Part shown: positions 2,362 to 12,853 of the stretch, piece by piece
How positions within the stretch are numbered: position 1 is the first letter of the stretch
How the letters are laid out: each line of letters opens with the position of its first letter
Virus record (IMG/VR): IMGVR_UViG_3300027976_000197
Coordinates: 1 to 25,444 of that record
From: a virus
Reading direction: 5' to 3' (one strand)
DNA: 25,444 nucleotides
Notes under the pieces: generated by a model
The model's input: the letters and a program-made list of their open reading frames with translations, nothing else
The model's database searches: none
What the model was told of the DNA's origin: nothing
Translations under genes and position numbers: made by a program

Positions 2362-4674
2362 ATGGCAAATACTGCATTTAAAATAGACAATGGATTGGTT
2401 GTATCTGGTCAATCCGCCGACATCTATTCTCCAGTAAAAATATTTAGTACACTAAATGTGTCTTCATCAGTTACGATTGGTGGGTCTTTAACAGTAACTG
2501 GAAACTTAACATACTCTAACACTCAAATTTCAGGTGAGTTGGTTCCAACGTCATCTGGCATACCTCTAGGCAACACCGCAAACAGATTTGATTTATATGC
2601 TAGAAATATATATGTTGCAAATAATGTATTGCCGACAGCTAATGGTATTGTTCTAGGTGGAGTTTCCGCAAGATTTGATGGATATTTTACAAACATAAAT
2701 TCAAATGGTATTATAACAGTTGGCACCACTACATTAAATTCTACATTCTATGCCGCCACCGCGAACAACGCAAATACAGTATTTGGGCTTGGTGCTAATG
2801 GTATCGTAGTAAGAACTGGAAGCGGATCAGGCGCCGTTAGAACTCTTCAATCATCCAATGGTATGTCTATAACAAATGCTAATGGTGTTAGTGGTGATCC
2901 TACTATGACATTGTTGATACAGGATGGTTTATTTTCTAATACTACTGGCATGTATATTAATGCGTCTGCAATAGCTATTGGTACATTACCAATAACTCAT
3001 GGTGGTACTGGTAGTACTAGTCAAGCGGGTGCAGCAAATAACATATTACCGGCTCAAGGCGCTCCAGCTATAGGTCAGTTTTTAAGATCAACAGGAAGCG
3101 CCGTTGAGTGGGCGGATGGTCCACTTGGATTTACCGGTTCGAAGGGATTTACTGGTTCTCAGGGCACGACAGGATCTGTGGGTTTTACAGGATCTAAAGG
3201 TGATATGGGTAACACTGGCTCGACCGGCCCTCAAGGTCCAATAGGATTTACTGGATCAGCATCAACTGTAGTAGGACCGACTGGTCCAACCGGAGCAGGC
3301 GGGTCTATAGGATTTACTGGCTCGTTGGGTGCGGTTGGACCGACTGGTCCAACCGGTGGAATAGGACCAGCTGGTTTCACTGGGTCTCAGGGTAATCTTG
3401 GGTATATTGGGTCTGCTGGTACAAATGGTACAAATGGGTTCACTGGATCAAAAGGTGATCAAGGAGTTATAGGATATACTGGATCGCGTGGTAATACTGG
3501 CTATACTGGTTCGTTAGGTGGGACCGGACCACAGGGAGTACAAGGCGTACAAGGACCACAGGGCGTACAAGGTGTTATAGGTTATACCGGTTCGCGTGGA
3601 CCTGATAAATTAGTATCTGCTGGTCAAATAGTAAAGTCGGCGACTGGTTCTTTAACTTCTGGCGATACTGGATCCCATATATTAGCTACGACTGCTGGTA
3701 TTACGCTGACATTACCAACTTCTGCTGTTAATGGAAGTATAATTTCATTATCAAACATAACTACTGGTACTATTACACTTTCATATTCTGGCTCTGCTGG
3801 AACAGATGGTCCTACTTCATTAGAAGCTGGTGGTTCGTTGATGTTAATATCTGATGGGAACTCCCCTCCTTTCTGGAGAAAATTCTTCTTCAGTGGTGGT
3901 ACAGGAATTGCGACTCTTACAGCGAACTATTTACCTAAGGGAAACGGAACCGCTGCTTTCAGTGCTTCACAAATAAATGATAACGGCACTGATATTGGGT
4001 TTGGAGTTGTACCCGTCCAACAAAACGGGAAGGCATTCCACTTCTACAATAGCGCAGGCCCTATAGACCTTCGGTTGACGAACAACACAACTGGCACATC
4101 ATATGACGATGGTGGATTGCTTTCTATGATCGGATCCGATATGCATCTATGGAATATGGAAAATGCGCCATTGATATTCGGAGCGTATAACTCGGAGAAA
4201 ATGCGTATAGCAAACGATTATGTATTAGTAAATACCACAGCCAGCATAGACTCAGTTTCCTATCTCAAATTACAAGTTCTAGGCGGAATATCGACTAAGA
4301 TCGGCGGGACAAGTGCTGCCAGCCAAGTCTCGTTTTTTAACAATAATGGTCGGGTTGGGTACATTGGGACTGATGGCACGACCACAACTTATTTTACGTC
4401 ATCCGATATTCGATTGAAGAAAAACATTACCTACGCAGATGATACAGCTACTATAATTGATAACATCAAGGTCCGTAAATTTGATTGGAAAGTCGATGAT
4501 AACCACCAACGCTACGGCTTTGTTGCTCAAGAGCTACATACGATATACCCAGAAGCGGTCGGAGTAATGAACGATCCCGAGGCATCGATGTCGGTGGATT
4601 ACTCTAAACTAGTACCCGTGCTTGTGAAAGAGATACAGTCATTACGTGCACGCGTATCCGCACTTGAAGTGTGA
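2362..4674 (+). CDS. Collagen-like tail fibre with C-terminal S74 intramolecular chaperone
   Basis: This 770-residue fibre protein is modular. The N-terminal about 130 residues contain two related units ('ELVPTSSGIPLGNTANRF', 'VLPTANGIVLGGVSARF'), a pattern common in marine phage fibres. Residues about 253-414 form a Gly-X-Y stretch of roughly 50 triplets rich in GFT, GSK and GPT. A globular region (about 420-675) follows, then a peptidase S74 / endosialidase-type chaperone from about residue 681: 'SSDIRLKKN' with the Ser-Asp cleavage site and downstream Lys, 'YGFVAQEL', and a coiled end 'PVLVKEIQSLRARVSALEV'. In this family the chaperone trimerises the fibre and then cuts itself off before the Ser; here that would leave about 680 residues. 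From about 3870 onward the DNA looks richer in G+C than upstream, suggesting a swapped 3' module. Confidence 0.9.
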   Translation: MANTAFKIDNGLVVSGQSADIYSPVKIFSTLNVSSSVTIGGSLTVTGNLTYSNTQISGELVPTSSGIPLGNTANRFDLYARNIYVANNVLPTANGIVLGGVSARFDGYFTNINSNGIITVGTTTLNSTFYAATANNANTVFGLGANGIVVRTGSGSGAVRTLQSSNGMSITNANGVSGDPTMTLLIQDGLFSNTTGMYINASAIAIGTLPITHGGTGSTSQAGAANNILPAQGAPAIGQFLRSTGSAVEWADGPLGFTGSKGFTGSQGTTGSVGFTGSKGDMGNTGSTGPQGPIGFTGSASTVVGPTGPTGAGGSIGFTGSLGAVGPTGPTGGIGPAGFTGSQGNLGYIGSAGTNGTNGFTGSKGDQGVIGYTGSRGNTGYTGSLGGTGPQGVQGVQGPQGVQGVIGYTGSRGPDKLVSAGQIVKSATGSLTSGDTGSHILATTAGITLTLPTSAVNGSIISLSNITTGTITLSYSGSAGTDGPTSLEAGGSLMLISDGNSPPFWRKFFFSGGTGIATLTANYLPKGNGTAAFSASQINDNGTDIGFGVVPVQQNGKAFHFYNSAGPIDLRLTNNTTGTSYDDGGLLSMIGSDMHLWNMENAPLIFGAYNSEKMRIANDYVLVNTTASIDSVSYLKLQVLGGISTKIGGTSAASQVSFFNNNGRVGYIGTDGTTTTYFTSSDIRLKKNITYADDTATIIDNIKVRKFDWKVDDNHQRYGFVAQELHTIYPEAVGVMNDPEASMSVDYSKLVPVLVKEIQSLRARVSALEV
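3118..3603 (+). repeat. Collagen-like Gly-X-Y repeat region
   Basis: The stretch reads as continuous G-X-Y triplets (GPL GFT GSK GFT GSQ ... GYT GSR GPD) with one break after the triplet GSA, where 'STVV' intervenes. X is often Phe, Tyr, Pro or Ser; Y is mostly Thr, Lys, Gln or Arg. Prolines lie at X, not Y. The most repeated hexapeptide is GFTGSK/GFTGSQ. Such segments form triple-helical shafts in phage fibres. Confidence 0.9.
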
Positions 4675-4847
4675 TAAGAGAAAAGACAACAGTTCCAGCG
4701 AAACAATAAATAGAAAGAATGTTAATTAAAAATTATAGATAGGAAATCGCCTTCTTCTGGGTCGGGTTCTTCGAGTTCTGGTAAAAACCCGCCAACAAAC
4801 AACCTAGATCAGTAAAATAAACAATTTAATAAAAGAAAGAAAATAAA
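4675..4847 (+). other. 173-base gap between fibre and oxygenase genes, with a Ser/Gly-rich coding remnant
   Basis: No complete gene is visible. One frame is open from 4726 to the stop at 4813-4815 without an ATG and encodes a Ser/Gly-rich end ('SPSSGSGSSSSGKNPPTNN'), which looks like the last codons of a lost structural or fibre gene. An AATAAATA at 4705-4712 is a weak late-promoter candidate. CGGGTT (4763-4768) and AACCCG (4786-4791) could pair, but no T-run follows. AAGAAAG shortly before 4848 may act as the ribosome binding site of the oxygenase. Confidence 0.4.
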
Positions 4848-7748: not shown

Positions 7749-8206
7749 AAAAAGATTTAAATAAATCATTAGATTTATCACCCAATGCATATGATACTAA
7801 AGATGGTGTGGATAATATTAAAAATGTTCCAGCTATTGTTGATGCAGACTGTGAGGTTGTGAAATCTGAAATTGAAGAAGATATCGACAATAGTAGAAAT
7901 TCAATTTATGAATTACTTGACATCGCAAACGACGCGATTGCTGACATGGTAGATATTGCTAAACAATCTCAACATCCTAAAGCATATGATACGTTAAACA
8001 GTATGCTTAAAACTACAGCAGGTCTTTATAAGGATATACTTGGTGTTCAGAGTAGAAAGAAAGAGTTGATGAACAACACTAACAATCAACCACAATCTCC
8101 AGAAACTGATGGTGCTATTCATAACACACAGAATATATTTGTGGGTTCTACGACTGAACTTCAAAATCTTTTAAATGATATGAGAAAGGATAAAGATGGA
8201 AGTTAG
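7745..8206 (+). CDS. gp16: Terminase small subunit gp16
   Basis: This 153-residue protein matches T4 gp16 (164 residues) in size, position and architecture. An acidic N-terminus is followed by a long helical central segment ('NSIYELLDIANDAIADMVDI' and 'AYDTLNSMLKTTAGLYKDIL') that in the family forms the oligomerising coiled coil, and then a flexible tail. gp16 forms rings that recognise DNA and regulate the gp17 ATPase and nuclease. It overlaps gp15 by 4 bases and the first terminase fragment by 11 bases. The gp17 ribosome binding site (AAGGA) lies inside this gene. Confidence 0.88.
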   Translation: MKKDLNKSLDLSPNAYDTKDGVDNIKNVPAIVDADCEVVKSEIEEDIDNSRNSIYELLDIANDAIADMVDIAKQSQHPKAYDTLNSMLKTTAGLYKDILGVQSRKKELMNNTNNQPQSPETDGAIHNTQNIFVGSTTELQNLLNDMRKDKDGS

Positions 8207-8579
8207 AGGTTATAACGGTAATCCATTACTCAAAAAGCCAAGACAGAGTCACAATTGGTCACCAGAGCAAGTTAAAGAATGGGTAAAGTGCGCAAATGAT
8301 CCAATCTATTTCGCGCAGACATACATAAAAATTGTTCACGTTGATCGTGGACTCATTCCAATTGATTTGTATGATTACCAAGAAGAAATCATTAATAAGA
8401 TAACAAATAACCGTCGAGTTACTGTTGTAACATCTCGTCAGGCCGGTAAGTGTGTCGAAGCTTCAACAGTTATAAATATAAGAAACAAGTTAACCAATAA
8501 AATACAACGAATGTCGGTGGGTGAATTTTATGAAATACAAAAAGCACATAGTGAGAATGATACTGAAGATAAGAAATGA
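8196..8579 (+). CDS. gp17: Large terminase gp17 fragment 1: N-extein (to Walker A Lys) + N-intein 1
   Basis: This 127-residue product has two parts. Residues 1-85 are the N-terminus of a T4-type TerL: 'HNWSPEQVKEWVKCANDP', 'YDYQEEII' (adenine-binding/Q-motif area) and the Walker A 'SRQAGK', which stops at the Lys. Residues 86-127 begin with Cys and read as intein block A ('CVEASTVINIRNK', then 'MSVGEFYEI') before a TGA. The missing Walker A Thr is the first residue after the C-intein at 9920. The product therefore cannot be an active ATPase alone; it should be joined in trans to the 9548 product. The N-intein is unusually short (42 residues) and lacks block B. AAAGGA precedes the ATG inside gp16. 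A chance frameshift does not explain the clean Cys...His-Asn/Thr boundaries. Confidence 0.93.
   Translation: MEVRGYNGNPLLKKPRQSHNWSPEQVKEWVKCANDPIYFAQTYIKIVHVDRGLIPIDLYDYQEEIINKITNNRRVTVVTSRQAGKCVEASTVINIRNKLTNKIQRMSVGEFYEIQKAHSENDTEDKK
8451..8576 (+). other. Split intein 1, N-half (Walker A insertion)
   Basis: It starts at Cys (TGT 8451-8453), directly after the Walker A Lys, and ends at TGA 8577-8579, giving 42 residues. Cys1 is the nucleophile expected for the first acyl shift. Only block A and the next strand/helix ('RMSVGEFYEI') are present; block B (TxxH-like) is on the C-half. This is the atypical early split position. Confidence 0.9.
8471..8478 (+). promoter_or_regulatory. Late-promoter-like TATAAATA inside N-intein 1
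   Basis: This is an exact match to the octamer found upstream of genes 13, 18, 19 and 67, but located within N-intein coding sequence (residues VINI). It lies 51-78 bases before the possible starts of the endonuclease gene. The AT richness makes chance matches possible. Confidence 0.4.
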
Positions 8580-9555
8580 TATTCATACATTTTCAGATTT
8601 AAGAACCATCATCGCAATGCAACAATATGGAATCAAAAGAGTGGTGGGTCGAAGTGATAATATGGCCAGGATAATGAAATCTGGATTATCCTGGCAGCAC
8701 AGGATCGTGTGGATGAAAAATATAAATTCCTATATAGGTAAGAAGGGTGAAAATGTTGGTTGGTTAACAGTCGTGCATAATGATAATGGTGAATATGCCC
8801 ATGACACAATTAGTATGAAATCTGAAAGATGGTCGAATAAAAACAACCCCGGCCACAACCATGGTGGTAGACTATCAGTATACTCTAAAAATAATCCAAA
8901 ATTTAATGCTAAAGCTGCTGAAGTTGCAAAACTAAAAAACAAAGAAAAACAATTAAATGGTTCTTCAATCAGAACACTTCAATATTGGATTAACAAAGGA
9001 TATCCTATTGAAGAAGCTAAAATCAAACTATCTGAACATCAAACGACATTCAGTCTTAAAAAATGCATAGGTGAACATGGTAAAGAGATGGGTCTTGAGA
9101 GATGGAATGAACGCCAAACCAGGTGGCTGAATACACTTAACAACAAAACACAAGACGAAATTGATGCAATTAATATTAAAAAGGCATCAAAAATAAATTA
9201 TAGAACATTGTGGTCGAATAAAATTGATCATCCAGGAAGACTTTATTTAATAAAAATTGGTGATAATCTAAAAATAGGTATTACTACAAAAACTATAAAT
9301 GAAAGATTCTCGCGATGCGGGCTTGAATACAATATTATTGTAGATGATGAAATGAATATTGGTAAGGCGTTTGAGCTTGAGCAACTTACATTAAGAATAT
9401 TTAAGAATTACAGATTTTCCACTAAAGTAACTACAGAAAATTTTAAATATGAATGTTTATCAGAACTATTAATTTTTTTAGAAAAAAATTCTCAAAGAAG
9501 TTACGAATCATTAAATGAAGAATTAAGAAACATAATAAGAGAAAACAATGCATAA
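8557..9555 (+). CDS. Homing endonuclease inside split intein 1 (C-terminal GIY-YIG/T5orf172-like domain)
   Basis: A basic protein (332 residues from ATG 8557) lies between the two halves of intein 1. The N-terminal about 90 residues are unassigned ('VGWLTVVHND', 'YAHDTISMKSERW'). Next come modules I recall from phage homing endonucleases: 'NNPGHNHGGRLSVYS' and 'KKCIGEHGKEMGLERWNERQ', probably DNA-binding. The last about 100 residues carry a GIY-YIG-like core of the T5orf172/MUG113 type: 'LYLIKIGDNLKIGIT', the Arg in 'INERFSR', and a later acidic position. The start is uncertain: GTG 8521 and ATG 8530, 8557 and 8617 share the frame, and none has a strong ribosome binding site; the first two lie deep in N-intein coding. 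The stop overlaps the C-intein 1 start by 8 bases. Its likely role is homing to intein-free terminase genes, by analogy. Confidence 0.75.
   Translation: MILKIRNDIHTFSDLRTIIAMQQYGIKRVVGRSDNMARIMKSGLSWQHRIVWMKNINSYIGKKGENVGWLTVVHNDNGEYAHDTISMKSERWSNKNNPGHNHGGRLSVYSKNNPKFNAKAAEVAKLKNKEKQLNGSSIRTLQYWINKGYPIEEAKIKLSEHQTTFSLKKCIGEHGKEMGLERWNERQTRWLNTLNNKTQDEIDAINIKKASKINYRTLWSNKIDHPGRLYLIKIGDNLKIGITTKTINERFSRCGLEYNIIVDDEMNIGKAFELEQLTLRIFKNYRFSTKVTTENFKYECLSELLIFLEKNSQRSYESLNEELRNIIRENNA
8665..8695 (+). repeat. Perfect 11-base inverted repeat in the endonuclease gene
   Basis: GCCAGGATAAT (8665-8675) pairs perfectly with ATTATCCTGGC (8685-8695) around a 9-base loop. The first arm includes the AT of an in-frame ATG at 8674, and another ATG lies at 8662. 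The hairpin could hide an internal start or act as a regulatory or processing site. No T-run follows, so it is not a terminator. Confidence 0.6.
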
Positions 9556-9919
9556 ACTTTCAGAAACAGTAGAGCGCAAATTTGTAGCATCTTTTGATGT
9601 TGATGAATGGGAAATTGAAACTGATACTGGTTGGGAAGACATTTCAGCTATCCATAAAACTATAGTATATGATGAATGGAAAATTGAAACATCATCCGGT
9701 AAAAAATTAATGTGTGCTGATAATCATATCCTTTTTGATGAAAATTTAAACGAAATATTTACTAAGAACTGTAAACCAAAAGTAACTCATATTATGACTA
9801 AAGATGGTCCAGAATTGGTATTTAAGTGTAATAAAACTGAAAAATCATCTAATATGTATGATATTACTGTAGACAGCGACAATCATAGATTCTATACTAA
9901 TGATATTTTAAGTCACAAT
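9548..9919 (+). other. Split intein 1, C-half
   Basis: It is 124 residues from ATG 9548 to Asn at 9917-9919. Visible blocks are B ('WKIETSSGKKLMCADNHILF', with His as catalytic block B residue), F ('MYDITVDSDNHRFYTNDI') and G ('LSHN'), followed by +1 Thr at 9920. The penultimate His and terminal Asn needed for Asn cyclisation are present. A strand pair before block B ('WEIETDTGWEDIS') belongs to the part normally on an N-intein. Confidence 0.92.
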
Positions 9920-11029
9920 ACTACAACTGCAGCATGTGTGATTCTCCATTATATATTATTTAACGAAGTAAAGCTTGTGGCTTTACTTGCACAGAAGGGT
10001 GATGCTGCTCGAGAAATTTTAGACCGTGTTAAGTTATCATATGAATCTTTACCTGACTGGTTACAACAAGGTGTTGTTTCTTGGAACAAGGGTTCTATTG
10101 AATTAGAAAATGGTTGTAAAGTTATTGCAGCTGCTACATCATCTTCAGCTATTCGTGGTAAATCTGTTAACCTATTGTACATTGATGAATGTGTAGAAGG
10201 CAATTCTTTTGTGTGTGTAGAAATTAAAGATAGATATTTTTATTCTAAAATTGCAGATTTTATAAATATAAATGAAAGCGACTTCATCAATAAGATTGTG
10301 AATAATATGAGTGCAGCAATTTATAAAACTATCAATAAAATAAACGGTAAAGAATATGTAGGTTTACATAGAATATCATCTCCAGATATTCTATACGAGA
10401 TGAGTGAAAGTGGGTCAATTTTTTCCGATGGATATCTAGGGTCTGGTATTAGAATAAAAGATGCTATAGTAAAATATGGCCCAGAAAATATGAGACAAGA
10501 ACTAATATTCTTTTCGGATGATATTAATAAAGTTTCAAATTACGAAGAAATGATAGTTACAAAGGAATACGTAAAGAATGATAATACTTATAATCTCAAA
10601 GTAGGTGGATTAAATTACATCTTAACAGAAACACAGAGGTTGAGTAAGGGTGATAAAATAAAGCATTGGATTCGTAATAACCCAGAAAAACATAAAGAAA
10701 GAATGGATAAAATTAATAAAAATCCAGACAAGATTGCTAAAACTGCGGCCAAACATAGTGGTATGAAAAGATCAGCCGAAACAATAAAAAATATATCTGA
10801 ATCATTGAAGGGCAGTATCCCATATAACTTAGGTAAGAAATATATGCACAATTCCGTCACCGGTGAGATACAGGAATTTGACAGTGAATTACCAGCCGGT
10901 TGGAAATTAGGGACTGGGTGTTCTAATGGGCCTAAAAATAAAAAAGCTTATTTTAATTCTGAAACTCTTCAAATTAAGTTTTACGTTGAAGACTCCGAAC
11001 CGTTTGGTTGGAGTCTAGGAAGAAAATGA
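9548..11029 (+). CDS. gp17: Large terminase gp17 fragment 2: C-intein 1 + middle ATPase extein + N-intein 2 fused to GIY-YIG endonuclease
   Basis: This is a 493-residue composite. Residues 1-124 are C-intein 1, with block B 'SGKKLMCADNH' and the end 'YTNDILSHN'. Residues 125-214 are terminase: 'TTTAACVILHY' completes Walker A, and the segment ends at Walker B 'LLYIDE'. Residues 215-253 are N-intein 2, starting 'CVEGNSFVCVEI'. From Met254 a GIY-YIG nuclease follows in frame: 'AIYKTINKINGKEYVGLH', 'YLGSGIRIKDAIVKYG', the Glu of 'NYEEMIVTKEYV', and 'YNLKVGG'. A NUMOD3-like 'HSGMKRSAETIKNISESLKG' and two 'GW.LG' modules follow. The nuclease could be made as a fusion or start separately at ATG 10307. 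ATG 9548 overlaps the upstream endonuclease stop; the TGA overlaps the next start (ATGA). After splicing on both sides only 90 residues remain in the mature terminase. Confidence 0.92.
   Translation: MHKLSETVERKFVASFDVDEWEIETDTGWEDISAIHKTIVYDEWKIETSSGKKLMCADNHILFDENLNEIFTKNCKPKVTHIMTKDGPELVFKCNKTEKSSNMYDITVDSDNHRFYTNDILSHNTTTAACVILHYILFNEVKLVALLAQKGDAAREILDRVKLSYESLPDWLQQGVVSWNKGSIELENGCKVIAAATSSSAIRGKSVNLLYIDECVEGNSFVCVEIKDRYFYSKIADFININESDFINKIVNNMSAAIYKTINKINGKEYVGLHRISSPDILYEMSESGSIFSDGYLGSGIRIKDAIVKYGPENMRQELIFFSDDINKVSNYEEMIVTKEYVKNDNTYNLKVGGLNYILTETQRLSKGDKIKHWIRNNPEKHKERMDKINKNPDKIAKTAAKHSGMKRSAETIKNISESLKGSIPYNLGKKYMHNSVTGEIQEFDSELPAGWKLGTGCSNGPKNKKAYFNSETLQIKFYVEDSEPFGWSLGRK
10190..10306 (+). 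other. Split intein 2, N-half (Walker B insertion)
   Basis: It starts at Cys (TGT 10190-10192), immediately after the Walker B Asp-Glu. About 39 residues read as block A ('CVEGNSFVCVEI', 'YFYSKIADF') before the frame continues without a stop into the GIY-YIG endonuclease at Met254. Block B is absent here and present on the C-half at 11026. Confidence 0.87.
10261..10268 (+). promoter_or_regulatory. Late-promoter-like TATAAATA inside N-intein 2
   Basis: An exact TATAAATA in the coding sequence for 'FINI' of N-intein 2 lies 38 bases before the ATG (10307) that could start the GIY-YIG endonuclease alone. It resembles the element in N-intein 1. Function is inferred only. Confidence 0.4.
10307..11026 (+). 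other. GIY-YIG homing endonuclease domain with NUMOD3-like tail
   Basis: These are 240 codons in frame with N-intein 2. The GIY-YIG catalytic signature is complete in variant form: Tyr of 'IYK', 'YVG', Arg in 'GSGIRIK', and the Glu/Asn region 'EEMIVTKEY...YNLKVGG'. A basic NUMOD3-like region (about 10700-10840) and two copies of a short module ending 'GWKLG' and 'GWSLG' should bind DNA. It could be translated as part of fragment 2 or from its own ATG at 10307. Confidence 0.85.
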
Positions 11030-11322
11030 AAATCTTAGGTATTGAAGAGTTTGTAGAATTTGAAGGGTTTAAAGAAACTGGAATTAAAAGATGTCTAAAA
11101 ATTATTTTTTTAGACGGATCAAATTTCACGTGTTCAGAAAATCATGCAATAAAGATATCTGATAATAAAGAGTGGTCTTTAGCAAGAGAACTGATTGTAG
11201 GCGATGATCTTAACAGTAAGTCTATAAAAAGTATAGAATCAGTAGGGAATACTCAAACATATTCTCCAATAAATGTTGGAACAGACTTTACTTATTATTC
11301 ATCTGGTTTTTACAATCACAAT
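11026..11322 (+). other. Split intein 2, C-half
   Basis: It is 99 residues ending 'FYNHN' at 11320-11322, followed by +1 Cys (11323-11325). Block B 'SNFTCSENH' has the expected Cys/Thr...His arrangement. His-Asn at the end supports C-terminal cleavage. It is shorter than C-intein 1 and clearly different from it in sequence. Confidence 0.92.
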
Positions 11323-11697
11323 TGTGCGTTTGTCGAAAACTGGGATGAGTTCTTTGCAGCTGTTTTTCCAACAATTTCTTCTGGTAAAACAACAAAAATT
11401 CTATTCACGTCTACTCCTAATGGATTAAATCACTTCTATAAGACTTGTATGGGTGCTAGAGATGGTTCTAATGGTTACCAATATGTTGAAGTGCCGTGGC
11501 AACAAGTTCCTGGTAGAGATGAAGAGTGGAGAAAAGAAACGCTCGCGGCTATGGACTTTGATCTTGAGAAATTTGCTCAGGAATTCGAATGTGTAGCTGG
11601 TGATAGTATGATAGATATTATGAACATAGAAACTAATGAAGTATTCAACATACCAATATCTAGCTTTTATAATTGGGTAATGTTGGAAAATTCATAA
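11026..11697 (+). CDS. gp17: Large terminase gp17 fragment 3: C-intein 2 + ATPase extein + N-intein 3
   Basis: This product is 223 residues from ATG 11026. That start is preferred to the GAG-overlapping start at 11008 because AGGA lies 5 bases upstream and the ATG overlaps the endonuclease TGA (ATGA). Residues 1-99 are C-intein 2: block B 'DGSNFTCSENHAIKI', a block F region 'YSPINVGTDFTYYSSG', end 'FYNHN'. Residues 100-188 are terminase: 'CAFVENWDEF' continues Walker B, then 'ISSGKTTKILFTSTPNGLNHFY' contains the coupling motif, up to 'FAQEFE'. Residues 189-223 are N-intein 3 ('CVAGDSMIDIMNIE', 'IPISSFYNW'), ending at TAA. The fragment therefore has intein halves at both ends, must splice on both sides, and contributes 89 residues to the mature enzyme. 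Confidence 0.92.
   Translation: MKILGIEEFVEFEGFKETGIKRCLKIIFLDGSNFTCSENHAIKISDNKEWSLARELIVGDDLNSKSIKSIESVGNTQTYSPINVGTDFTYYSSGFYNHNCAFVENWDEFFAAVFPTISSGKTTKILFTSTPNGLNHFYKTCMGARDGSNGYQYVEVPWQQVPGRDEEWRKETLAAMDFDLEKFAQEFECVAGDSMIDIMNIETNEVFNIPISSFYNWVMLENS
11590..11694 (+). other. Split intein 3, N-half (ATPase-nuclease junction)
   Basis: It is 35 residues from Cys (11590-11592) to the TAA at 11695-11697. It starts 'CVAGDSMIDIM' after extein 'QEFE'. The insertion point and very short N-half correspond to what I recall of the AceL-TerL split intein (25-residue N-intein, found in a metagenomic phage terminase), which also follows an EFE-type sequence. Confidence 0.88.
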
Positions 11698-11731
11698 TTA
11701 ATAAATATTTTAGACAAAAGAGGTATTAGGT
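11698..11731 (+). promoter_or_regulatory. Intergenic break of intein 3: TTAATAAATA promoter-like element and ribosome binding site
   Basis: The two intein 3 halves are separated by only 34 bases. TTAATAAATA at 11698-11707 is identical to the decamers before gp22, gp23 and the gene at 22234. AGAGG at 11719-11723 is a good ribosome binding site for GTG 11732. There is no room for an endonuclease. Confidence 0.6.
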
Positions 11732-12013
11732 GTGAAGACTTCACGTAAGTATATGATACTCACACCAACTGGGTGGAGTAATTTTTCTGGAATAAGAAGA
11801 AAACACTCTACTAATGTTATTAAAATTGATGACGGCATCGCGACATTAAAGTGTACAAAAGATCATCTAATTAAAATAGATGGAAACTTTACACAAGCTC
11901 AACATCTAATTGAAAAATTTACAATAACAGATGAATCTTCTCAAGATGTATACGATATCTTAGATGTCGAATTAAATAACGAATATATTACAAATGGATT
12001 TATTAGCCACAAT
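11732..12013 (+). other. Split intein 3, C-half (AceL-TerL-like)
   Basis: It is 94 residues ending 'FISHN' at 12011-12013, followed by +1 Cys (12014-12016). 'MILTPTGWSNFSGI' and 'YITNGFISHN' resemble what I recall of the AceL-TerL C-intein ('KILSPNGFSNFNGI', 'YITNGVVSHN'). Block B is 'LKCTKDH'. The terminal His-Asn and +1 Cys are present. Confidence 0.9.
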
Positions 12014-12853
12014 TGTGCATGGCTTGGTAGTTCTGGTACACTGATATCTGGTGCTGTACTAAAAACTCTAGTTGGTCAAATTCCAATTAAAGCTCACGAT
12101 GGGCTTAAAATGTATTTCGAACCAGACCCGCTTAGAAAATATACCATGACTGTAGATACGTCACAGGGCAAGGGTTTAGACTATTCTTCGATACAAATCA
12201 TAGATATAACTGAAATGCCATACCAACAGGTATGTACTTTTAAAAACAATCTCATGACGCCAGGCGATTTCTCTGAATTAATTTTCAGAATGAGTAAGAC
12301 ATATCACGATGCTACCATATTGATAGAATTAAATGATGTAGGACATACAGTCGCAGAGACCATCTATAATGAATATGAAGCAGAAACTCTAATTTCAACT
12401 GAAAGTGCTGGAGCTAGAGGTAAAAGAATATCAGCTGGATTTGGTAAATCATCAGAGAAGGGTATTAGAGTATCAAAATCTGTTAAAGGATTAGGTTGTT
12501 CTGTACTTAAATTGTTGATAGAACAGCGCCAACTTATCATTAACGATCATGATACTATTCATGAATTGTCACGATTTTCTAAAAAGGCCAATTCCTATGA
12601 AGCAGAATCTGGAGCACATGACGATTTAGTTATGCCTCTAGTCATATTTGCATGGATGACTGATCAGCAATACTTTAAAGATCTTACAGACATAAATACT
12701 CTAATGAAACTCAGAGATAAAACTGAAGATCAGTTGATGAATGAACTAAGTGGATTTGGATTTGTGGACGATGGAAGTTCGTATCATCAAGAAGAAGATA
12801 CAATAATTGATATGACAACTGACTTTCGTCAAGAGTTCCGCGGGCTTTTTTAA
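11732..12853 (+). CDS. gp17: Large terminase gp17 fragment 4: C-intein 3 + nuclease-domain extein
   Basis: This product is 373 residues from GTG 11732, chosen for the AGAGG 8 bases upstream; ATG 11753 is the alternative. Residues 1-94 are C-intein 3: 'MILTPTGWSNFSGIRRK', block B 'ATLKCTKDHLIKI', end 'YITNGFISHN'. Residues 95-373 are the terminase C-terminal part, opening 'CAWLGSSGTLISG'. The RNase H-like nuclease residues are intact: D142 in 'TMTVDTSQGKGLDYSS', E199 in 'ILIELNDVG', and D297/D298 in 'AHDDLVMPLVIF'. These would cut concatemeric DNA during packaging. Summed exteins (85+90+89+279) give 543 residues, near other T4-like TerLs (T4: 610). GGCTT/AAGCC around the stop could form a small hairpin. 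Confidence 0.93.
   Translation: MKTSRKYMILTPTGWSNFSGIRRKHSTNVIKIDDGIATLKCTKDHLIKIDGNFTQAQHLIEKFTITDESSQDVYDILDVELNNEYITNGFISHNCAWLGSSGTLISGAVLKTLVGQIPIKAHDGLKMYFEPDPLRKYTMTVDTSQGKGLDYSSIQIIDITEMPYQQVCTFKNNLMTPGDFSELIFRMSKTYHDATILIELNDVGHTVAETIYNEYEAETLISTESAGARGKRISAGFGKSSEKGIRVSKSVKGLGCSVLKLLIEQRQLIINDHDTIHELSRFSKKANSYEAESGAHDDLVMPLVIFAWMTDQQYFKDLTDINTLMKLRDKTEDQLMNELSGFGFVDDGSSYHQEEDTIIDMTTDFRQEFRGLF

What the first reader, a model, noticed from the sequence alone, without database searches (positions are those of the whole stretch)
10190..11029. Intein 2: GIY-YIG endonuclease fused in frame to the N-intein, with an ATGA restart at the C-intein
The N-intein runs without a stop into a complete GIY-YIG nuclease with a NUMOD3-like tail, and the C-intein begins at an ATG overlapping the nuclease stop. 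This looks like an intermediate between a normal bifunctional intein (endonuclease inside one protein) and a fully fractured gene with a separate endonuclease. Most endonuclease-containing inteins use LAGLIDADG or HNH domains, so an in-frame GIY-YIG domain after an N-intein is unusual.
Basis: partly seen in the sequence, partly recalled or inferred. Interest (0 to 1): 0.75.

Follow-up and report, generated by a model that had tools for sequence, protein, structure and literature searches.

The report
Phage split intein fused to nuclease
In a virus of bacteria, the gene for the DNA-packaging motor is cut into pieces that rejoin as proteins, and at one cut the rejoining element (a split intein) runs straight into a DNA-cutting enzyme without the stop signal that normally separates them; this is a rare variant of a known arrangement, and it recurs in cultured Vibrio phages where it can be tested.

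Summary
The T4-like terminase gene (terL) carries three split inteins. At the second (Walker B, DE|C) the N-intein (10190-10306) runs stop-free into a GIY-YIG homing endonuclease (10307-11026); the C-intein starts at an ATGA overlap (11026) behind its own Shine-Dalgarno. An independent contig (98% identical nuclease) has the same arrangement.

The inteins are of the AceL-TerL/Cat "atypical split" class. In 64 other split clusters at these terL sites the N-intein ends in a stop after 24-56 residues; 49 of them carry a separate endonuclease-sized ORF, most often GIY-YIG. So GIY-YIG is usual here and the missing stop is the rare part. It recurs, with a different GIY-YIG lineage and at another terL site, in cultured Vibrio phages (K469, 1.244.A, VP-1), conserved despite saturated synonymous sites.

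A T4 late-promoter motif lies inside the N-intein before the GIY-YIG start, as before free-standing endonucleases in 25 of 40 fractured loci. The locus is best read as a fractured gene lacking the N-intein stop, not a step away from a bifunctional intein. Most likely the terL-intein-nuclease fusion trans-splices with the separately started C-intein. Splicing, cleavage and use of free versus fused nuclease are untested.

The parts
8196..12853 (+). terL (gp17-like terminase large subunit) in four extein pieces with three split inteins; spliced product 543 aa
   Evidence: Concatenated exteins align over 100% with intein-less phage TerL (56% to Sinorhizobium phage phiM12)
8451..8579 (+). N-intein 1 (Walker A site, SRQAGK|C), ends in a stop
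8530..9555 (+). ORF between intein 1 halves, presumed endonuclease of unknown family (GTG start at 8521 also possible)
   Evidence: no Pfam/PHROG match; TATAAATA at 8471 upstream
9548..9919 (+). C-intein 1
   Evidence: with N-intein 1, profile match to contiguous terL mini-inteins, 4e-24
9920..10189 (+). TerL extein 2, ends at Walker B YIDE
10190..10306 (+). N-intein 2 (39 aa, Cys1), in frame with the nuclease
   Evidence: IN+IC matches engineered Cat intein 6DSL, E 9.6e-8
10261..10268 (+). TATAAATA, T4-type late-promoter motif inside N-intein 2
   Evidence: same motif within 60 nt of free-standing nuclease starts in 25/40 fractured loci vs 0.5 expected
10307..11029 (+). GIY-YIG homing endonuclease (240 aa), weak internal Shine-Dalgarno at ATG 10307
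11017..11022 (+). AGGAAG, Shine-Dalgarno for C-intein 2 inside the nuclease gene
   Evidence: anti-SD energy -5.9 kcal/mol vs -1.5 at ATG 10307
11026..11029 (+). ATGA start/stop overlap; preceded by an A run (possible slip site)
11026..11322 (+). C-intein 2 (99 aa, penultimate His, final Asn)
11323..11589 (+). TerL extein 3, begins with +1 Cys
11590..11697 (+). N-intein 3, ends in a stop, no nuclease follows
11732..12013 (+). C-intein 3; the whole of intein 3 is absent from the close relative L002
12014..12853 (+). TerL extein 4 (nuclease domain)
   Evidence: Pfam Terminase_6C 1.4e-9

Best explanation
This is an atypically split (AceL-TerL/Cat type) intein in a T4-like terL gene, carrying a GIY-YIG homing endonuclease cassette at the N-intein/C-intein break: a fractured-gene locus that lacks the N-intein stop codon. 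Translation of terL piece 2 continues through N-intein 2 into the nuclease, giving an extein-N-intein-nuclease fusion (follows directly from the sequence). The C-intein with extein 3 starts separately at the ATGA overlap from its own Shine-Dalgarno, possibly by termination-reinitiation (inferred). The two halves then associate and trans-splice, and the nuclease leaves as a C-terminal appendage of the excised N-intein (inferred). A late-promoter motif inside the N-intein may also give free nuclease from ATG 10307 (inferred). The nuclease would cut intein-less terL alleles so that the cassette homes (inferred).
For: Stop-free fusion and ATGA overlap, conserved in an independent contig. IN+IC together match contiguous mini-inteins of terL (67 bits for the pair, 57 for IC alone) and the engineered Cat intein 6DSL. 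Good SD at the C-intein start in the window, K469 and 1.244.A (-5.9, -7.3, -9.5 kcal/mol). Fractured terL loci share the break position, and their nucleases carry the late-promoter motif just upstream (25/40 vs 0.5 expected, 0/40 upstream of C-inteins). Same fusion in Vibrio phages K469, 1.244.A and VP-1 at another terL site; K469 vs 1.244.A collinear over 653 codons, nuclease pS 0.83 vs pN 0.12 in the core. Of the 80 closest terL matches, 79 span both insertion sites at uninterrupted length. GIY-YIG catalytic columns intact and I-TevI-like fold.
Against: No biochemical evidence for splicing, reinitiation or cleavage. N-intein 2 alone scores weakly (6 bits). An A run before TGA would allow -1 frameshifting. 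The open frame could arise by chance about 14% of the time. The late-promoter motif is not in excess in the window as a whole (6 found, 4.2 expected) and its reversed control is as common; the case rests on position and on the other loci. The Vibrio fusions have no such motif in the N-intein.
Confidence: 0.72

Rival explanations
1. The fusion is a by-product. The working nuclease is made free from the nested late promoter and ATG 10307; the frame is open only because a stop was lost by chance, with no function for the fusion.
For: TATAAATA at 10261, 38 nt before ATG 10307; same promoter-nuclease spacing in free-standing loci; chance of an open frame about 14%.
Against: Weak Shine-Dalgarno at ATG 10307 (-1.5), though many free-standing ones are weak too. 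The Vibrio phages keep a fusion over long divergence with no such motif in the N-intein.
Confidence: 0.3
2. A programmed -1 frameshift at A-AAA-TGA just before 11029 joins all parts into one chain, so this is a cis-splicing bifunctional intein with GIY-YIG in the middle.
For: AAAA immediately before TGA; a -1 slip reads straight into ATG 11026 and the C-intein.
Against: C-intein has its own SD and ATG. The Vibrio loci need +1, have no comparable run and have even stronger SDs. In the other split terL clusters the N-intein stop and the C-intein are well apart or in separate ORFs.
Confidence: 0.1
3. Decaying element: the intein or nuclease is inactive and the lost stop is the first sign of decay.
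For: Nuclease differs by 12 nt from L002, 5 of 8 changed codons nonsynonymous, including a 7-base block.
Against: No stops or indels; IN unchanged and IC with four synonymous changes only; catalytic residues intact. TerL needs splicing.
Confidence: 0.1
4. Sequencing or assembly error removed a stop.
For: Contig from a metagenome.
Against: Same arrangement in an independent contig carrying its own SNPs and in sequenced phage isolates.
Confidence: 0.02

Closest known systems
AceL-TerL / GOS-TerL / Cat atypical split inteins (described in PMC11766414; Cat structure 6DSL)
   Same: terL host gene, short N-intein (25-39 aa) and long C-intein (about 100 aa), Cys1 in most, HN end; IN+IC matches the Cat sequence
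   Different: Those N-inteins are described as separate short fragments; here the N-intein runs into a nuclease. This one sits at Walker B.
Fractured genes with free-standing homing endonucleases (Dassa et al. 2009, full text not held here; cited in PMC6892783 and PMC10448857)
   Same: Conserved phage enzyme gene broken at a split intein with an endonuclease gene in between
   Different: The endonuclease is not free-standing in the reading frame: no stop after the N-intein, although a nested promoter could still free it
AceL NrdHF split intein (PMC7891396)
   Same: GIY-YIG endonuclease between the halves of a split intein
   Different: Class 3 intein, canonical split site (98+48 aa), described as an intervening endonuclease
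Vibrio phages K469, 1.244.A and VP-1 terL (annotated as terminase pieces)
   Same: N-intein in frame with GIY-YIG, C-intein ORF overlapping its end
   Different: Site 3 instead of site 2, different GIY-YIG lineage, no late-promoter motif in the N-intein
LAGLIDADG bifunctional inteins
   Same: Endonuclease carried by the intein polypeptide
   Different: One chain and canonical insertion site there; here two chains and the N-proximal break

Membership tests
Atypically split terL intein (AceL-TerL/Cat class) | Short N-intein and about 100-aa C-intein that together make one HINT sequence | tested here: met
   39 + 99 aa; profile and Cat matches
Atypically split terL intein (AceL-TerL/Cat class) | Catalytic residues Cys1, block-B His, penultimate His, final Asn, +1 Cys | tested here: met
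   C1, SENH, HN|C in the alignment and sequence
Atypically split terL intein (AceL-TerL/Cat class) | Trans-splices | not testable with these tools
   needs expression
Fractured gene | Host gene broken at a split intein with an endonuclease gene between the halves | tested here: met
Fractured gene | Endonuclease free-standing, separated from the N-intein by a stop | tested here: not met
   no stop from 10190 to 11026; 49 other clusters have the stop
GIY-YIG homing endonuclease | GIY-YIG catalytic motif and fold | tested here: met
GIY-YIG homing endonuclease | Cuts intein-less allele near the insertion site | not testable with these tools
   empty sites exist in relatives; cleavage not testable
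Single-chain bifunctional intein | Both intein halves and the endonuclease in one reading frame | tested here: not met
   C-intein is in the -1 frame behind its own start; frameshifting not excluded

The most novel reading that the evidence does not exclude
Natural split inteins in which the N-half and a GIY-YIG nuclease are one selected polypeptide, so that the excised intein is a two-chain splicing-plus-homing complex, having arisen at least twice (Walker B site here, site 3 in Vibrio phages) from fractured genes, while a promoter nested in the N-intein can additionally release free nuclease.
Probability: 0.35. Interest if true: 0.62.

Novelty: new variant of a known kind. Interest (0 to 1): 0.5.

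Why it matters
How homing endonucleases enter inteins, and how split inteins arise, is an open question. Here one terL gene shows three states side by side (separate ORF, in-frame fusion, no nuclease), and relatives show contiguous, fractured and fused forms at the same sites. The Vibrio phages are isolates, so whether a fused nuclease helps or hinders trans-splicing and homing can be tested directly. Three different atypical split inteins in one gene are also of practical interest for protein ligation.

Tried and rejected
Sequencing error: rejected by L002 and the Vibrio isolates. Only L002 was found as a close relative of the nuclease or C-intein 2 in viral contigs; in genome contigs there was one 30% match in an archaeal MAG. 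A viral-contig search with the Vibrio fusion found nothing. PDB sequence search with the nuclease gave nothing meaningful. Dassa et al. 2009 is not held, so its examples could not be checked for fusions. 67 further site-3 C-intein loci could not be classified, being truncated or without a recognisable N-part. Two apparent 'contiguous' loci (L132, L167) are intein-less and were removed from the count. The reversed-motif control for TATAAATA in the window was not lower than the motif, so no claim is made from the window count alone.

Full report
What is there. The window is an IMG/VR virus contig of 25,444 bases from a T4-like myovirus; terL lies at 8196-12853. Removing three inteins gives a 543-aa TerL that aligns over its full length with intein-less phage TerL proteins, best 56% with Sinorhizobium phages phiM12/phiN3. 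The inteins sit at Walker A (GK|T), Walker B (DE|C) and further on (FE|CAWLGS, 'site 3'). Each is split near its N end. Intein 1 has a separate overlapping ORF between its halves, intein 2 has the GIY-YIG nuclease in frame, intein 3 has nothing. A close relative, L002, has inteins 1 and 2 but an empty site 3.

The finding itself. From Cys 10190 the frame runs without a stop through Met 10307 to TGA 11027-11029; C-intein 2 starts at ATG 11026 in the -1 frame. L002 keeps the same arrangement, with 12 substitutions and no indel in the nuclease, no change in the N-intein and four synonymous changes in the C-intein.

Is it an intein? N-intein 2 plus C-intein 2 score 67 bits against a profile of contiguous mini-inteins from terL sites 2 and 3 (shuffled controls 0-2 bits; the C-intein alone 57; the N-intein alone only 6), with Cys1, block-B His and His-Asn end. 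The best solved structure by sequence is the engineered consensus atypical intein, 6DSL, E 9.6e-8, then VidaL at 0.13. The short N-intein and long C-intein match the AceL-TerL/GOS-TerL/Cat class (review PMC11766414).

Is it a GIY-YIG nuclease? PHROG homing endonuclease E 1e-20; Pfam only below cut-off. Catalytic columns are intact. The AlphaFold2 model is confident only over the GIY-YIG domain (block means of pLDDT 83-89 for residues 41-60 and 91-120; whole model 60) and its best match is the I-TevI catalytic domain, 1LN0, probability 0.99, TM-score 0.70 by target length, although E is only 0.065.

How usual is the missing stop? With the phage records added, 80 clusters were classified; two prove intein-less. 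Of 78: 11 contiguous mini-inteins, 49 fractured with an N-intein stop and an ORF of 100 aa or more between the halves, 15 split without such an ORF, 3 fused. The fused ones are the window/L002 pair, Vibrio phage K469 and Vibrio phage 1.244.A; the two Vibrio phages were found through the window's own C-intein and through K469, so they do not give a frequency. Among site-3 clusters from the pattern scans none was fused. Of 43 endonucleases (40 from fractured loci, 3 fused) Pfam GIY-YIG hits 20, HNH_3 7, and Vsr-like DUF559/MTES_1575 4.

The parallel case. In Vibrio phages K469 (seven near-identical records), 1.244.A/1.255.O and VP-1 the N-intein at site 3 runs in frame into a different GIY-YIG protein, and the C-intein frame overlaps its end. 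1.244.A and VP-1 are filed under Ackermannviridae. K469 and 1.244.A are collinear over 653 codons; synonymous sites are saturated in the nuclease (pS 0.83) while pN is 0.12 in the core and 0.23 overall. VP-1 is 44% identical over 257 aa. A tree of GIY-YIG domains puts the window and Vibrio nucleases apart, with modest support. So the fused state looks to have arisen at least twice, and lasts in one lineage. In VP-1 no clear start for the C-intein was found; that case is less clear.

Expression. The C-intein start has a good Shine-Dalgarno in window, K469 and 1.244.A (-5.9, -7.3, -9.5 kcal/mol), the internal nuclease Met of the window a weak one (-1.5). TATAAATA, the T4 late-promoter motif (established knowledge), occurs six times in the window, all on the + strand and within about 60 nt before ORF starts, one inside N-intein 2 and one inside N-intein 1. 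The count alone is not in excess (4.2 expected) and the reversed word is as common. But in fractured loci the motif lies within 60 nt upstream of the free-standing endonuclease in 25 of 40 divergent clusters, against 0.5 expected for random stretches of the same loci, 1 on the other strand and 0 before C-inteins. I therefore infer that the window's nuclease kept the promoter of a free-standing endonuclease. The Vibrio fusions lack TATAAATA or CTAAATA in the N-intein, although a CTAAATA motif precedes their sheath gene.

Mechanism. Follows from the sequence: a ribosome that makes terL piece 2 goes on into the nuclease. Inferred: reinitiation or independent initiation at ATG 11026; association and trans-splicing; release of the nuclease on the excised N-intein; extra free nuclease late in infection; homing into intein-less terL. 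Empty target sites are abundant: of the 80 best terL matches in IMG/VR, 79 (67-77% identical) span sites 2 and 3 at uninterrupted length and the other is the L002 contig; that ranking favours uninterrupted genes.

Verdict. Observation confirmed; interpretation partly supported. New variant of a known kind: a fractured-gene split intein lacking the N-intein stop. I found no published description of an N-intein-endonuclease fusion in a natural split intein in the papers I could search, but the founding paper (Dassa et al. 2009) was not held, so priority is not established.

Noticed in passing
L202 (IMGVR_UViG_3300035661_000851), 3663-4832 on the - strand: The ORF between the two halves of a terL site-3 split intein looks like an IS605 OrfB/TnpB protein (one member of alignment A1 hits OrfB_IS605 at 6e-31; start of the L202 ORF), which would put a TnpB-type nuclease in the place of a homing endonuclease.
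   Followed up: partly
L014, L018, L021, L023, L026, L030 (132-135 kb phage genomes, possibly Campylobacter phages): The terL C-part begins with a C-intein right after a neck-like gene and no N-intein was seen in the 1.9 kb upstream, so the two terL halves seem to lie apart in the genome.
   Followed up: no
window 8530-9555: The ORF between the halves of intein 1 has no Pfam or PHROG match; possibly an undescribed endonuclease family.
   Followed up: no
window 11590-12013 and L002: Intein 3 is present in the window and precisely absent from the otherwise near-identical L002: a presence/absence polymorphism of a nuclease-free split intein.
   Followed up: partly
L208 (Vibrio phage VP-1) 3160-3420: The C-intein frame overlaps the end of the nuclease ORF with no clear ATG plus Shine-Dalgarno near the C-intein start; the annotated start at 3408 cuts the C-intein short.
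   Followed up: partly
   Followed up: partly
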